This document shows, one piece after another, positions 5,661 through 48,600 of a stretch of 64,000 nt of DNA. The position numbers and the translations under genes were made by a program. The DNA comes from Lepus europaeus. Taxonomy: Eukaryota; Chordata; Mammalia; Lagomorpha; Leporidae. The stretch spans positions 78,016,462 to 78,080,461 of the forward strand of contig NC_084834.1 in NCBI RefSeq assembly GCF_033115175.1, in the 5' to 3' direction. Below the pieces are notes generated by a model. The model was not told the origin of the DNA, ran no database searches, and saw only the letters and a list, made by a program, of their open reading frames with translations. Every line of letters begins with the position of its first letter. Positions within the stretch are counted from its first letter, which is position 1.

Positions 5661-7043
5661 ATTATACAAATCAATGAAAAGATTGCTTCATATTTCACCT
5701 GCTTAAATTTTCTGTATGCCTTCAGTCCTTGGTAAATTTTTTTTTTTTTTTTTGGTGTTTACTTTGGATTGGTTCTAGAATCTTTAAATTTTGTACCATA
5801 TGACTACAAAATCAAATGGCTATGTCAAAAGAAAATGAATTGACTCCACAATTTAAGTGAGGATTTAAAAAAAAAATTACCTGGTTTTAAATATCTAAGG
5901 ATGCCTGGTATTCTGGAAAAAAATCTATAATTATTTATAAAAAAAGATCCCATAGGGGCAACTGAACAGCTGTCGAAAGATCTGGCACATCACGATGCCA
6001 GCCTGAATTTAATGACCTACATGTGAAGGGCTACATATCCAATTACTAATCCTCACTCTGCTACTCTTTGCCCTGATATGGAGGCAGCTGAAAAAAGATG
6101 CCCTACTAACGGATCAGAAATGGATCCAGACTTCACTGCCAATGTTCAGCTAACAGAGAACTTTTAGATTTGAGATGAGAGAAAAAGAGAGGTACCACAA
6201 CAATGTGACAGCTGGCAGTTCTTAAAATAAAATTTGAGGGTTTAATGCAAGAATGAATTTTTTGTTTTTGTTTTACTAAATTCAGGAAAGTTCCAATTCT
6301 TTTAGAGAACCTCAAATTTTCAATTTAACTTTGTGTTCATGGAAGTCTTTAAACACATTCAAGTATGTCTTCAAACATACTACACTTCATATTTCTTTCC
6401 ATACTCAAAAGGTAGTCTTCTCCTAAAAGATTCAAATCTCATTCTTAACCTTCACTGCCTACAATAACTACTTATTAGAAGTGGGGCCAAGAAAAATAAA
6501 TAATAAAGTAAGTAGAAAAGGACAAGATGACTCAGTCTATATATAGCACAAAGATTATATAAGGCCAAGCACTGTAAACAATGAAATGTCACCCGATATT
6601 TTGCAAAACAGCACAGGAAAAAAAATAGCTCAAGAAATGAATGGCGAGTAAAGTACATGGCCATCTTACTTCAGCCATTTTTTCAAAGGAGGTTTGGAGG
6701 AATTCTACATTTAAGCCCATTGTACCGTGAATCTGACTCATTTTTTTAAATTTAATTTTCCACCTCAGTTATGTAAAAACACGGGATACTGGTAACACTT
6801 CCAATACATTAGAAATAATTTAGTTAAGAGACACTTTCCTCTTCACCACAGAAGTGCCTCTCCTGTTTCCCTTTTTCAATTTTTATAAGGGGTTACCTTA
6901 GTCCCCTTTCAACAGATATACAAACGAATATAAACCCACAGGTACACAGTTACCTCCTGAAGCGGGAACTACACACACACTGTAACCACTCCTAATCTCT
7001 TTACTCCAGACCTGCCCCCTTTAAACCCCTCCTCTTTCTCCCA
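5661..7043. other. Upstream flank of the CpG island
   Basis: AT-rich with poly-T and poly-A runs. No exon of MTTP or any other gene is recognised apart from the candidate donor near 6953. Confidence 0.5.
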
Positions 7044-7060
7044 TTGCAGGCCCGAAGTTG
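6954..7060 (-). other. Candidate non-coding first exon on the - strand (MTTP long transcript)
   Basis: Reading the - strand out of the CpG island, TTCAGGAG|GTAACT gives a strong splice donor at 6954/6953. Human MTTP has a transcript whose first exon begins next to TRMT10A (recalled). The right boundary given here is a guess. No MTTP coding exon, including the signal-peptide exon, was found between 1 and 7000. Low confidence. Confidence 0.3.
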
Positions 7061-7800
7061 GCGCACTTCGATGACGTACGACGTATCCGCCGTCGTAGCC
7101 GCCACCACGCCCCTGCCTCTGGGAGTTGAAGTTTCCGACGGAGGATTCCTGAGCGGTGTCGAGGAACACTCCAGAAAGGCTTATCTCTGCGAGCTTTCCT
7201 GTTCCCCATCAACACCTCAGCAAGGTAACGCTCCGGTAACTGTGGCTGGTTTTCGCCTGCTCTTTGATAGCTTTGGACGCACAATAAGCGCAAGCCATGC
7301 TGTCCTCGACTGGCAGCAAGGGCTTCCGGGGGAAAGGGGAGTGGGGCCGAGAAACTGCTAGTAGTGCTGCTGTTGCCGAAGGAAGTGACGTCAGATTGTG
7401 TGCGCCCGCGGCCTGTGTGGCCGCTCTCTGACTCGCTGGTTGCAACTTAGTCCCGCCTCTCGAACGCGTCCGCTGGCGCGCAAGTCCGAGGCGTGGACTG
7501 CAGAGTGGGCGAGGCTCTGCCTCCCGGCTTGGCGGGGTTACGTTAGGCGTTTGTTCCGAGAGTGGGGAGCCAGCCCCTAGCGTGTAAGGGCGTGATTTTG
7601 TAAAGGATGACAAGAGGAGGAGGCCCGGGCCCTGGAGGGTGGGAAGACTACTTGGGATTCTGCCACTTCGTGGCTAGTGACGGGGGCAGGTCGCCCACCC
7701 CTCTGATCCTGCTTTAGCTTAGTTTTCCCCTGAGGGAACGTGGCGGAGTCCCGGGGGAAGTCGTCGCGGGTGCTGCTAACCCCGCTGTGGTGCCCCAAGG
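7044..7800. promoter_or_regulatory. CpG-island bidirectional-type promoter of TRMT10A (and probably an upstream MTTP exon)
   Basis: This is the one long CpG-dense, TATA-less stretch beside a gene in an otherwise AT-rich window. Visible elements: TGACGTAC near 7072, CCACGCCCC near 7106, a GGAAGTGACGTCA composite near 7381, and several GCGC/CGCG runs up to 7780. It sits upstream of the first TRMT10A coding exon, so the transcript must begin with a non-coding exon here. CAAG|GTAACG at 7221-7230 is a good + strand donor candidate, but the start site is not determined. In human, TRMT10A and a long MTTP transcript start about 100 bases apart on opposite strands (recalled). That supports a shared promoter here. 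No housekeeping-type promoter is visible for C4orf17. Confidence 0.8.
7386..7393. promoter_or_regulatory. Consensus CRE palindrome next to an ETS-type site
   Basis: TGACGTCA is a perfect CREB/ATF palindrome. It overlaps GGAAGTGA, an ETS-like core, inside the CpG island. This pairing is common in TATA-less housekeeping promoters. Binding is inferred from sequence only. Confidence 0.6.
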
Positions 7801-12640: not shown

Positions 12641-24688
<12,048 letters not shown>

Positions 24689-33510: not shown

Positions 33511-34230
33511 CATGGCCCAATACGGGGCATGATTGCGGCCATGGTGCAGCCAGGCCAGGCCCAGGGGCTCCGCATGCGCAGCTGCCCCTGAGCGCCCCCA
33601 CAGCTGCCCAAACCATGTGCAGCCGAGCCCGTGAACTAACCCAACCCACTGATCCAGAGCCAGCCAGCAGGTGTCCCAGGGGTGGCGGTGCAGGGAGAGG
33701 CCCGATGCGCATGCACGTGGCCCTGGCCACTGCCATGGCGGACAGCGGCCCATGGGGGGCGTGGTGGTAGCAGCTCTGGCCCCTGGAATGGGCAGTAGTG
33801 GCCCAGGGCCCCGCGTCTACTTCCAGAGCCCCCCGGGGCTGCTGGCGAGGGCCTGGGTGGCACGGACAACAGGGGCCCTGTGCGGTGCCAAGGAAGGGTC
33901 ACTGTGAAGCGCACCTGAGTCCAGGAGGTGCAGGGCCGGCTGCAGCACTTGCAGGAGGACTTCATCTACAACCTGCAGACACTGGAGGAGCGGGACTGTG
34001 AGCTGGAGCATGTGCACAGCTGCCGCCATGATGCCGCTGTGCCCAGGGCCGGCCACGAGCAAACTGCTGTCACGCAAGGAGGGGGAGTAGATCCTGGAGC
34101 AGCTCGCGTGGCTGCCACAGCCTCCTGGCAAGAGGACCATTGGGAACCAGGCTGCCAATGATGATGCCGGCAGCCTCTTCTCCAGCAGGCCCCACGAGAG
34201 GGGCAAAGAAGATGGCGCAGAGAGGAAGTA
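33511..34230 (+). pseudogene. Chimeric processed retrocopy: PPP1R14B-like plus CCDC57-like
   Basis: GC-rich island-like DNA. ATG at 33735 opens a frameshifted PPP1R14B N-terminus: MADSG start, GPRVYFQSPPG, and VTVK ending at 33909. From 33922 to 34062 the sequence instead resembles an internal CCDC57 coiled coil (VQGRLQHLQEDFIYNLQTLE, then ERDCELE). A stretch at 34063-34110 (KEGE, stop, ILEQLAWL) could be PPP1R14B EEWILEQL or CCDC57 KEEEW. No introns, several frameshifts and an in-frame TAG show it is dead. PPP1R14B is a PP1 inhibitor of the cytosol. Identities are from memory. The LTR-like unit follows directly. Confidence 0.65.
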
Positions 34231-34590
34231 AGGTGGGCGGAACCCAAAGTTGCTTACCACCAAAGCTGATTGGCCACGCAGCATCAGGGGAAGTGACAAC
34301 AACTGATGACGAGTGTATAGACATATGGCTAGTCCTATAAAAATCTCCCCGTAAAATGACCTTTTAAGTGACTGGTTGGTCCTTATGCCCTGCCCCAATG
34401 ACTGCAGTTTGTGCTTTAAAAGGCTTTGCTATGTGCGCAATAAATGAATTCATGCTTGACTTGACTCCCCACTGCGTCTGATTGTCTGATTGTCTCCAGG
34501 ATCGGGAGGCTGGGGAACAGGTGAGCGGCGCACTTACCTTTCCTCAGACCCAGTCCATCCTCGTTTGGGTGGACTAAGACCCTGCAGCCC
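34230..34590 (+). mobile_element. LTR-like unit at the 3' end of the chimera
   Basis: The order fits a retroviral-type LTR: a CTGATTGGCC inverted CCAAT box near 34265, TATAAAA at 34336, AATAAA at 34439 about 100 bases later, and a TGACTTGACTCCCC region with repeated GTCTGATT. TG/CA ends and target duplications were not resolved. No gag, pol or env sequence is visible. Confidence 0.5.
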
Positions 34591-34697
34591 AAGAATATTT
34601 TAAATATTTAAAAATTACCTAGAAAATTAGTTGTTATCCAACACTGGCACTGAGTAGAAACTAGTTCCATTTTAGCTCGTAAGTTAGAGATAATTTC

Positions 34698-35032
34698 TTT
34701 TTTCTTTTTTTTTTTTGACAGGCAGAGTGGACAGTGACAGAGAGAGACAGAGAGAAAGGTCTTCCTTTGCCGTTGGTTCACCCTCCAATGGCTGCTGCGG
34801 CAGGCGCACCGTGCTGATCCGATGGCAGGAGCCAGGTGCTTCTCCTGGTCTCCCATGCGGGTGCAGGGCCCAAGGACTTGGGCCATCCTCCACTGCACTC
34901 CCTGGCCACAGCAGAGAGCTGGCCTGGAAGAGGGGCAACCGGGACAGAAACCGGTGCCCTGACCGGGACTAGAATCCGGTGTGCTGGCGCCGCAAGGCGG
35001 AGGATTAGCCTAGTGAGCCGCGGCACCGGCAC
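34698..35032 (-). mobile_element. CSINE, young type
   Basis: Inverted copy with TTTGACAGGCAGAGTGGACA and CCGCGGCACCGGC. Flanked by GAGATAATTTC on both sides. Confidence 0.92.
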
Positions 35033-35366
35033 GAGATAATTTCAAATCCTTTTCTTTTGAGGAGAGGCGAGCATTTTTCCTCACTAGTCCAACAACTTTG
35101 AAGAACTATAGATTACAAAAGTCAGCTCAGATGTCAAAATTCTCAGTTTTTTCGTGTTTTCCTCTTCCATTTGTTTTCCTCTAACAGAGTTTGGAATCAG
35201 TGTGAGACTGTAACTGCTTAATTCTGGTTATGGATGCTTTTCCTTGTATCAGAACCCTAGCCTTATGTAATAATAATTGGGCTGGAAATGAAATATACCA
35301 AAAACATATTTCTTTTACATGTCACATTAAAATTAACTACAAATAGAAAAACTGTTTCAATTAAAA

Positions 35367-45600: not shown

Positions 45601-48600
45601 TTGTTGTATAGTGGGTTAAGCCTCTGCCTGCCATGGCAGCATCGTATACGGACACTGATTTGAGTTCCAGCTGTTCCACTTCTGATCCAGCTCCTTGCTG
45701 ATGTGCCAGGGAAGGCAGCAGAAGATGGCCCAAATCCCTGGGCCCCTGCATCCACATGAGAGACCTGGATGAAACTTCTAGCTCCCAGCTTCAGCCTTGC
45801 CCAGTCCTGGTCATTGCCACTGCAGCCATTTGAGGGGTGAGCCAGCATCAATTTCTCTCTCTTTCTCTGTCTCTAACTCATGAATAAAAATGTTAAAGAG
45901 AAAAGACTTCTAGGCCTGGACACGGGCCAGTGACTCTAGATGAGGTGTTTGGGCCTACCTCAGCCCCAGGAAGAGGCTTGCAAGGAAGGACTACCCCATT
46001 GTAGGAACTTCTTAAGTTCATTTGGAACAACACAGCAATTGCAGATTTGTATCCTCATGTTGTTGCCATGTTATGGATTTAATCAACCTCCCTCTTACTT
46101 TTATTTCCTGGTCCAGATAGTTAGGTATGCGAACGGTGCTCTCTTTGACTTCCACCTTGGTAGGCATCACCTCAGAGGAACAGGATCCAGCAGCGGAGTA
46201 CACCCTTGGGGGTGATGGTGGCTTTGTGACCTTACTTTCTTCCTAAATCAAGAGTATAATAAAAATCCATGCATTTATATCCACTTCTATTTGCATGAAA
46301 ATTAAATGTAAGATGAGTGAGAAGTATTGTAATTACTTAGATGCATGAAAGTGAATAGAGATTATTTTTAATCCCCCCAAGCTCTATCACATAGTTTTAA
46401 TTGGAGACAAGAACAAATAGCAATGTATATATTAACTTTTAGTAAGGCATTGAAAACCTTCGTTTAAGCACCGAGATGGTGATTTTTAGATGTTAAATGT
46501 GTTACCTTTATTTGTATTGCCATTGCAGATAACAACCATCCCATGACAGATGAGATCTGCCATTGAGTTGTAAAGATTTCTCTTTAATGACCGGGAAAGG
46601 ACAGCTGAGAGGTTTTATGCTTTGACTGTAAAGCAGTTATAGGGTGCACATTGCTACTTCCTTCCTCTGCTAAGAGGATGGAGAAAAGCTGTTTTCTAGT
46701 TCCAAGAGGTAAAAACACTGTTTGCAATTAAAAAACAATTTTAAAAAGGTGGGGGTTTTGAGGGCTTGAAGTCCAGGAAGAGTTACAGAAGCCTTGGGTC
46801 TGTGTTGAAAACAACCTGCAGAAGTATCACTATGTTGCTAGATCTGTATATTTGAAGTACATGAAACTTGTCTAACTTAAATAAAATTTTTAAAAAGTGA
46901 CTGATACTTAAAGGCATTCAGAAGAGAGTGAGTCAATACCTAGGACTGTGATGATCATCACTGACAGAACACATATAGTGAGGATAAAGCTGGAGTTTAT
47001 GTACAGCCATTGTTTTTTAAACATTTATTATGCAGACTTATTTTGGGGAGGAATAGTAAATAATTATTTTGTCCAAACTTCCCACTAAACATAACTAAAA
47101 AGACTAACTAAAAAAATTTTTTTTAAATTAAAAAACCAGAGTGAATAAAAGTGTGAGCAGGAACTAGGAAGCCTGTGCTGTAACAAGTACAATGGCCATT
47201 TTTACCCTGAGGTCATTGTCTGATCCCATAAAATGGGAGCTTTCTTTGTGACAAGTCTTTTAAGGGTCTGAGTGACAGAGCCCAAATAAAGGCCACCCAA
47301 GGGCTACATCCTCAAGGTGAAGATGACCTACAAGTGAAGTAGTCTGAAAAAAATACAGCCTGGGATCAAGGTTTACACTTGGTTTAGTTTGGTCTAGATG
47401 GATAAGGCCTCTGGTTTTCTATATAAGAAAGCACAAAGTTTGGGAAGGAAGAGTTTGGGCTTCAGATTCTTAAAAATAATACTTCATACATATGTCCAGC
47501 AACTGAGCCAGGAGTTAAAGAAGAAATTTCAATAAGAATTACAGAATATTTTGCACAATGCTAATGAAAATGCTTCATAGCAAAAAATGTGAAAGTATCT
47601 AAAGTAGTCTTTAGAGAATTGATAGTTTTTTGTTTTTTTTTTTTTTGACAGGAAGAGTGGACAGTGAGAGAGAGAGACAGAGAGAAAGGTCTTCCTTTTG
47701 CTGTTGGTTCACCCTCCAATGGCCGCCGTGGCTGGCGCGCTGCAGCCGGCGCACCGCGCTGATCTGAAGCCAGGAGCCAGGTGCTTCTCCTGGTCTCCCA
47801 TAGGGTGCAGGGCCCAAGCACTTGGGCCATCCTCCACTGCACTCCCTGGCCACAGCAGAGAGGCGGCCTGGGAGAGGGGCAACCGGGACAGAATCCGGTG
47901 CCCCGACCGGGACTAGAACCCGGGGTACCGGCGCCGCAAGGCAGAGGATTAGCCTATTGAGCTGCAGCGCTGGCTGAGAATTGATAGTTTTAAAATACAT
48001 GTAAAAGGGGTCTTCAAAAAGTTCATGGGAATGTATATTATGAAAAATTATGCATGGATTTCAAAATGTTTTTTTGACTAAAATAAAGTTTCCCTTTAAA
48101 AAAAAAAACTATTTGAAAGGGAGAGTGACAGAAAGAAAGGGAGAGAGAAAAGAGAGAGAGAGGGAGAGAGAAAGAGAGAAATCTTATTTCACTCCACAAA
48201 TGGCTCCAATAGCCATGGCTGGACCAGCAGTACAAAGCTCATCCGGGTCTCCCACATGGATGGCAGGGGCCAAGTCCTCAGGCCACCATCTGTTGCATTG
48301 CCAGACACTTTTAGCAGGGAGCAGGAGAGGAAGCAGAGCACTCAGGACTGGAACTGGTGCTCTGATATGGGATGCCAGCATTGCAAGCAGTGACAATCCA
48401 CTGTGCCACAATGCTGTCCCTAAACTTATCTTTTAATTTCATTTTTCCACAAGCTTTTTGAAGCCCCCTTGTATTAGAAAGATAGAAGAAGTTAGAAGTA
48501 CAATAATGTGTGTGAATAGAAAGAGAAAAGTAAGCGCAATCTAAATTAACAAAATAGAACAAATATAAAACATAGAGGATCAAAAAAATTACAAAAATTA

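What the first reader, a model, noticed from the sequence alone, without database searches (positions are those of the whole stretch)
33511..34590. GC-rich chimera of two host genes with an LTR-like 3' end
Seen: a PPP1R14B-like start (MADSG, RVYFQSPPG, VTVK), then a CCDC57-like coiled-coil piece (LQEDFIYNLQTLEERD), then a unit with TATAAAA, AATAAA and a GTCTGATT repeat. There are no introns, and frameshifts are present. Inference: this could be a non-autonomous LTR element that captured spliced host RNA, or an L1 template-switch product landing beside an LTR. I know of no described rabbit family like this. It is the strongest novelty candidate in the window.
Basis: partly seen in the sequence, partly recalled or inferred. 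Interest (0 to 1): 0.72.

Follow-up and report, generated by a model that had tools for sequence, protein, structure and literature searches.

The report
Retroviral LTR carrying host gene scraps
A relic of an ancient retrovirus in what looks like rabbit DNA seems to carry decayed pieces of two ordinary animal genes inside its terminal repeat, but whether it is one of many copies could not be checked here.

Summary
Gene names rest on human proteins that I recalled; 0 of 300 shuffles reach either score. Two things are new. First, a 6-bp direct repeat, GCCCAA (33515-33520, 34587-34592), brackets 33521-34586, which ends ...CCCTGCA and begins TACGGGG: 5 of 7 terminal-repeat matches, but TA instead of TG. 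By chance: repeat plus CA end in 413 of 40,000 placements, with 5 of 7 in 11. With no second LTR inside, it reads best as a 1,066-bp solo LTR whose U3 holds the host pieces, not as an L1 product beside an LTR. Second, a weaker CCDC57 match (aa 1-20, 34028-34087; 1 of 300 shuffles reaches it) lies after aa 40-72: permuted order, as template switching or a back-spliced RNA would leave. Family or one-off is untested: the genome search did not complete (11 tries), and the collections that could be searched are viral and prokaryotic. Host-gene capture by LTR elements is known; its place in U3 is unusual. Nothing suggests a function today.

The parts
33515..33520 (.). 5' copy of the 6-bp target-site-like repeat GCCCAA
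33521..34586 (+). whole unit, 1,066 bp, read as a solo LTR (begins TACGGGG, ends CCCTGCA)
   Evidence: no internal LTR copy
33521..33734 (+). GC-rich leader, origin not identified
   Evidence: no Pfam family
33735..33909 (+). piece resembling PPP1R14B aa 1-59, two frameshifts, one in-frame stop in the MADSG frame
   Evidence: recalled human protein
33910..34008 (+). piece resembling CCDC57 aa 40-72, one stop codon
   Evidence: recalled human protein
34028..34087 (+). weaker resemblance to CCDC57 aa 1-20, in another frame and after aa 40-72 (permuted order)
   Evidence: 0 of 400 shuffles of 34013-34233; 1 of 300 shuffles of 33521-34233; best of 177 tiles elsewhere in the window 45 against 48
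34088..34233 (+). not identified; a PPP1R14B-like EWILEQLTRL here is not significant
   Evidence: 145 of 400; 200 of 300
34269..34273 (-). ATTGG (inverted CCAAT box), 67 bp upstream of the TATA box
34336..34342 (+). TATAAAA
34439..34444 (+). AATAAA polyadenylation signal
34476..34491 (+). two GTCTGATT units, GU-rich, placed as a downstream polyadenylation element would be
   Evidence: role inferred
34587..34592 (.). 3' copy of the 6-bp target-site-like repeat GCCCAA

Best explanation
A solo LTR of an extinct endogenous retrovirus or LTR retrotransposon, about 1,066 bp, inserted by integrase (6-bp duplication GCCCAA) about 9 kb downstream of the last TRMT10A coding exon. Its long U3 carries pieces of two host genes, PPP1R14B and CCDC57. 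Shown: the gene resemblances (against recalled proteins), the LTR signals in order, the flanking repeat. [quoted passage not shown] U3 is copied to both ends, so they then sat in both LTRs; this copy inserted and later lost its interior by LTR-LTR recombination. The pieces are now decayed and non-coding.
For: GCCCAA exactly abuts both ends of 33521-34586 and the unit ends in CA; repeat plus CA end in 413 of 40,000 random placements, with at least 5 of 7 terminal matches in 11 of 40,000; edge shuffles 355 and 4 of 20,000 (the terminal-match cut was set after seeing the case). ATTGG, TATAAAA, AATAAA, GU-rich stretch and CA end in LTR order and spacing. No repeat of the 5' end within the unit, so no pair of LTRs. 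The joined flanks read as one AT-rich sequence. Host matches: 122 and 114 against shuffle maxima of 67 and 31. No A-rich tail.
Against: The 5' end is TA, not the canonical TG; the terminal repeat agrees at 5 of 7 (5 of 9) positions only. My first control used 6 of 9, which the case does not reach. A 6-bp repeat with a CA end alone is a 1% event. Other short repeats exist at the edges (GAATA, AGAA). No second copy was seen, so family membership, true ends and the place of U3 are unproven. An alternative start at 34234 (TGGGC...GCCCA, 5-bp perfect terminal repeat, 358 bp, end 34591) fits LTR ends better but has no flanking duplication.
Confidence: 0.5

Rival explanations
1. The 3' LTR is short (for example 34234-34591) and the host pieces lie in the interior of a truncated provirus or non-autonomous LTR element whose 5' LTR was lost. 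Host capture between the LTRs, as in known ERV gene capture.
For: TGGGC at 34234 and GCCCA ending at 34591 form a perfect 5-bp terminal repeat, with a purine-rich stretch just upstream. Interior capture is the published form (PMC4299795, passages).
Against: No duplication flanks 34234-34591. Needs loss of the 5' LTR, and then the GCCCAA repeat at both outer edges is a coincidence (about 1%).
Confidence: 0.2
2. The whole unit is a catalogued lagomorph LTR family with a long U3, whose resemblance to host genes has simply not been remarked on, so only the origin of its U3 would be new.
For: LTR anatomy. Repeat libraries were not available here, and none of the ten paper searches could show its consensus.
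Against: None direct; compatible with the best explanation.
Confidence: 0.35
3. One-off: an L1-made chimeric retrocopy of two mRNAs (template switching) that landed next to an old LTR.
For: Two host-gene pieces joined end to end with frameshifts.
Against: No A-rich tail at the end of the host part or of the unit; 6-bp repeat at the outer edges instead of a longer L1-type duplication.
Confidence: 0.1
4. The gene resemblances are chance matches of GC-rich, Leu/Glu-rich translations to proteins that I recalled wrongly.
For: References are recalled; the Pfam and PDB searches with window pieces were empty.
Against: Scores far above shuffles; the reversed proteins and the reverse-complement DNA scored 54 and 48 (PPP1R14B), 42 and 30 (CCDC57) against 219 and 124. 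A third protein recalled in the same way, TRMT10A, mapped exon by exon, and PDB named two of those exons.
Confidence: 0.06

Closest known systems
Host-gene capture by endogenous retroviruses (crocodilian KIT-ligand and nectin3 captures, PMC4299795, passages seen)
   Same: An LTR element has taken up host mRNA sequence.
   Different: There the host gene sits in the provirus interior as a reading frame; here short broken fragments of two genes appear to lie within the LTR itself.
LTR-mediated retrocopies by template switching (review PMC5408686, passages and section 2.2 seen)
   Same: Multiple switches among mRNAs in a virus-like particle give partial, chimeric copies bounded by LTR ends.
   Different: Those copies lie between two LTRs; here there is no second LTR.
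circRNA-derived pseudogenes (circRFWD2 in mouse, described in PMC5345220, passages seen)
   Same: Exon order is permuted, and the review reports 39 of 42 copies without poly(A).
   Different: Permutation here rests on a 20-residue match to a recalled protein; no exon boundaries are known.
SVA-type composite retroposons (recalled)
   Same: Composite of unrelated parts ending in LTR-derived sequence.
   Different: No poly(A) tail, ends past the polyadenylation site at a CA, 6-bp repeat.

Membership tests
Endogenous retroviral solo LTR | short direct repeat of host DNA abutting both ends | tested here: met
   GCCCAA twice, exact; 413 of 40,000 by chance with a CA end
Endogenous retroviral solo LTR | termini TG...CA with a short inverted repeat | tested here: inconclusive
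   3' CA met; 5' is TA; 5 of 7 inverted-repeat positions
Endogenous retroviral solo LTR | promoter, polyadenylation signal and U5 in order | tested here: met
   ATTGG, TATAAAA, AATAAA, GU-rich, CA; no test of activity
Endogenous retroviral solo LTR | same sequence present elsewhere as LTR pairs or solo copies | not testable with these tools
   no other copy in the 64-kb window; the genome search not answered in 11 tries
ERV class II (ERVK-like) | 6-bp target duplication (recalled as typical) and related pol | tested here: inconclusive
   6-bp repeat; no coding interior to place
L1-made processed pseudogene | A-rich tail | tested here: not met
   34587 onward reads GCCCAAGAATATT
L1-made processed pseudogene | longer target duplication (recalled 7-20 bp) | tested here: not met
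   longest shared word compared at the edges was 6 bp; the base before and the base after differ
Provirus with captured gene between two LTRs | LTR at both ends | tested here: not met
circRNA-derived pseudogene | exon order reversed across a known back-splice site | tested here: inconclusive
   CCDC57 aa 40-72 precedes aa 1-20; exon ends unknown

The most novel reading that the evidence does not exclude
A lagomorph LTR family whose U3 is built from host exons, including a CCDC57 segment read across a back-splice junction, so that reverse transcription of a circular RNA supplied part of a retroviral promoter region and was then multiplied as an LTR.
Probability: 0.1. Interest if true: 0.75.

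Novelty: new variant of a known kind. Interest (0 to 1): 0.45.

Why it matters
Captured host genes are known inside proviruses. If host exons can enter the U3, they are copied to both LTRs and spread as promoter-side DNA with every insertion, seeding the genome with CpG-rich gene starts. A permuted exon order would give a dated case of a circular or end-to-end-switched RNA entering an LTR element. Both points can be settled by one search of a lagomorph genome.

Tried and rejected
Rejected: 34234-34591 as a stand-alone solo LTR (perfect 5-bp terminal repeat, no flanking duplication); GAATA and AGAA as target duplications (no CA or TG beside them); a return to PPP1R14B at 34088 (EWILEQLTRL; 145 of 400 and 200 of 300 shuffles reach it); the CCDC57 piece as a continuation of PPP1R14B (score 24 against a shuffle mean of 23.3), although a frameshift-aware alignment ran on through it; CCDC57 aa 21-39 anywhere in the unit (252 and 266 of 300).

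Led nowhere: Pfam on nine pieces in both orientations; PDB on two pieces (empty; two hits at E about 0.7); Rfam on the window; plasmid and phage records (none); viral contigs patterns (three contigs that share only the simple GTCTGATT repeat); the search for related loci in viral contigs (101 candidates, 0 confirmed) and genome contigs (492 candidates, 0 confirmed); one genome contigs pattern. These collections hold viruses, plasmids and prokaryotes, so emptiness says nothing about rabbit copies. Ten paper searches listed no description of this element; two of them showed 15 of 825 and 12 of 90 papers, and several others were likewise cut, so this is weak.

Mended on review: I first took the terminal-repeat agreement as 6 of 9 and used that cut (4 of 20,000). 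It is 5 of 9 (5 of 7); one search repeats the control with the right cut.

Full report
Setting. The window is mammalian. A TRMT10A gene lies on the + strand: seven tblastn pieces of a recalled human TRMT10A fall between 12641 and 24685, and two of these exons, given as window translations, find TRMT10A (4fmw, named RG9MTD2) in the PDB. One short interspersed repeat family has 31 merged places in the window, the query included; I take it for the lagomorph C repeat, from memory. The finding lies about 9 kb downstream of the last TRMT10A coding piece and just upstream of one such repeat (34701-35035).

The observation. The unit is GC-rich (0.61 against 0.377 upstream) with a CpG observed/expected ratio of 0.44 against 0.08 in the 1 kb upstream and 0.45 in the 1 kb downstream, which contains the SINE. 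tblastn with recalled proteins places PPP1R14B and CCDC57 here (E 7e-12 and 5e-10 for the window) and gives no other PPP1R14B or CCDC57 match in the window better than E 0.29. The PPP1R14B match needs two frameshifts; 44 of 59 residues agree. Scores exceed every one of 300 shuffles. Several differences are A to V or R to C, as CpG decay of non-coding DNA gives (inference). The two pieces meet at 33910, in the same frame. The apparent continuation of PPP1R14B into the second piece is not significant alone (24 against a mean of 23.3), while CCDC57 scores 125 there against a shuffle maximum of 51.

A second CCDC57 piece. Aa 1-20 of the recalled CCDC57 match 34028-34087 with 11 of 20 identities. 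tblastn gave it E 0.53 for the window. Against shuffles of 34013-34233 no one of 400 reaches its score of 48; against shuffles of the wider 33521-34233, 1 of 300 does; over 177 tiles of the rest of the window, both strands, the best score is 45. It is therefore a good but not overwhelming match, helped by lying beside another CCDC57 piece. If real, the CCDC57 order is 40-72 then 1-20, with 19 bp between. A reverse transcriptase that ran off the 5' end of one CCDC57 RNA and jumped to another would produce this, and so would one that read across a back-splice junction. Nothing matched aa 21-39.

The ends. The unit 33521-34586 is abutted on both sides by GCCCAA and ends in CA. Its start, TACGGGG, agrees with the inverted end, TGCAGGG, at 5 of 7 positions; the canonical TG is absent. 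In 40,000 random placements in the window a 6-bp repeat abutting a CA end within the same tolerance occurred 413 times, with at least 5 of 7 terminal matches 11 times; letter shuffles of the two edges gave 355 and 4 of 20,000. The terminal cut was chosen after seeing the case. With the element taken out, the flanks join into a plausible AT-rich sequence with one GCCCAA. ATTGG 34269, TATAAAA 34336, AATAAA 34439 and GTCTGATT 34476/34484 stand in LTR order. No part of the 5' end recurs further in, so there is no pair of LTRs.

Reading. A duplication at both outer edges without an inner LTR means a solo LTR; everything from 33521 to the start of R would then be U3, host pieces included. Because U3 is duplicated at each round of reverse transcription, host pieces in U3 would have been in both LTRs of the parent provirus. 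This is an inference from one copy; copies elsewhere would test it, and the genome search that could show them did not complete in 11 tries. A 6-bp duplication is what I recall for class II (ERVK-like) elements; there is no coding interior to check this.

Known ground. A review describes template switching between LTR-element RNA and cellular mRNA, possibly several times, giving partial copies (PMC5408686, section 2.2). ERV capture of host mRNA is published (PMC4299795, passages), within proviral interiors. circRNA-derived pseudogenes are described in mouse and human, mostly without poly(A) (PMC5345220, passages). I found no paper on this chimera in ten searches of an open-access library (numbers in Tried and rejected), which is weak evidence of absence.

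Function. None is likely now: frameshifts and stops break both gene pieces. In the past the GC-rich U3 may have served as promoter-side DNA (speculation). The verdict is a new variant of a known kind, with moderate interest that rises if a family with the same junctions is found.

Noticed in passing
window 12641-24685, + strand: Seven pieces of a TRMT10A gene; two exons confirmed by PDB entry 4fmw.
   Followed up: partly
window, 31 places, e.g. 34701-35035, 17227-17562, 47635-47974: A dense SINE family, 68-96% identical to the copy at 34701-35035, taken from memory for the lagomorph C repeat.
   Followed up: partly
window 33817-34428, - strand: A 203-codon frame open on the opposite strand of the unit; no Pfam family, probably chance in GC-rich DNA.
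   Followed up: partly
window 33521-33734 and 34088-34233: GC-rich parts of the unit with no identified source; they could be further captured host sequence.
   Followed up: partly
window 6996-7673: Several long overlapping open frames on both strands, as a CpG-rich gene start would give; it lies about 5 kb upstream of the first TRMT10A piece.
   Followed up: no
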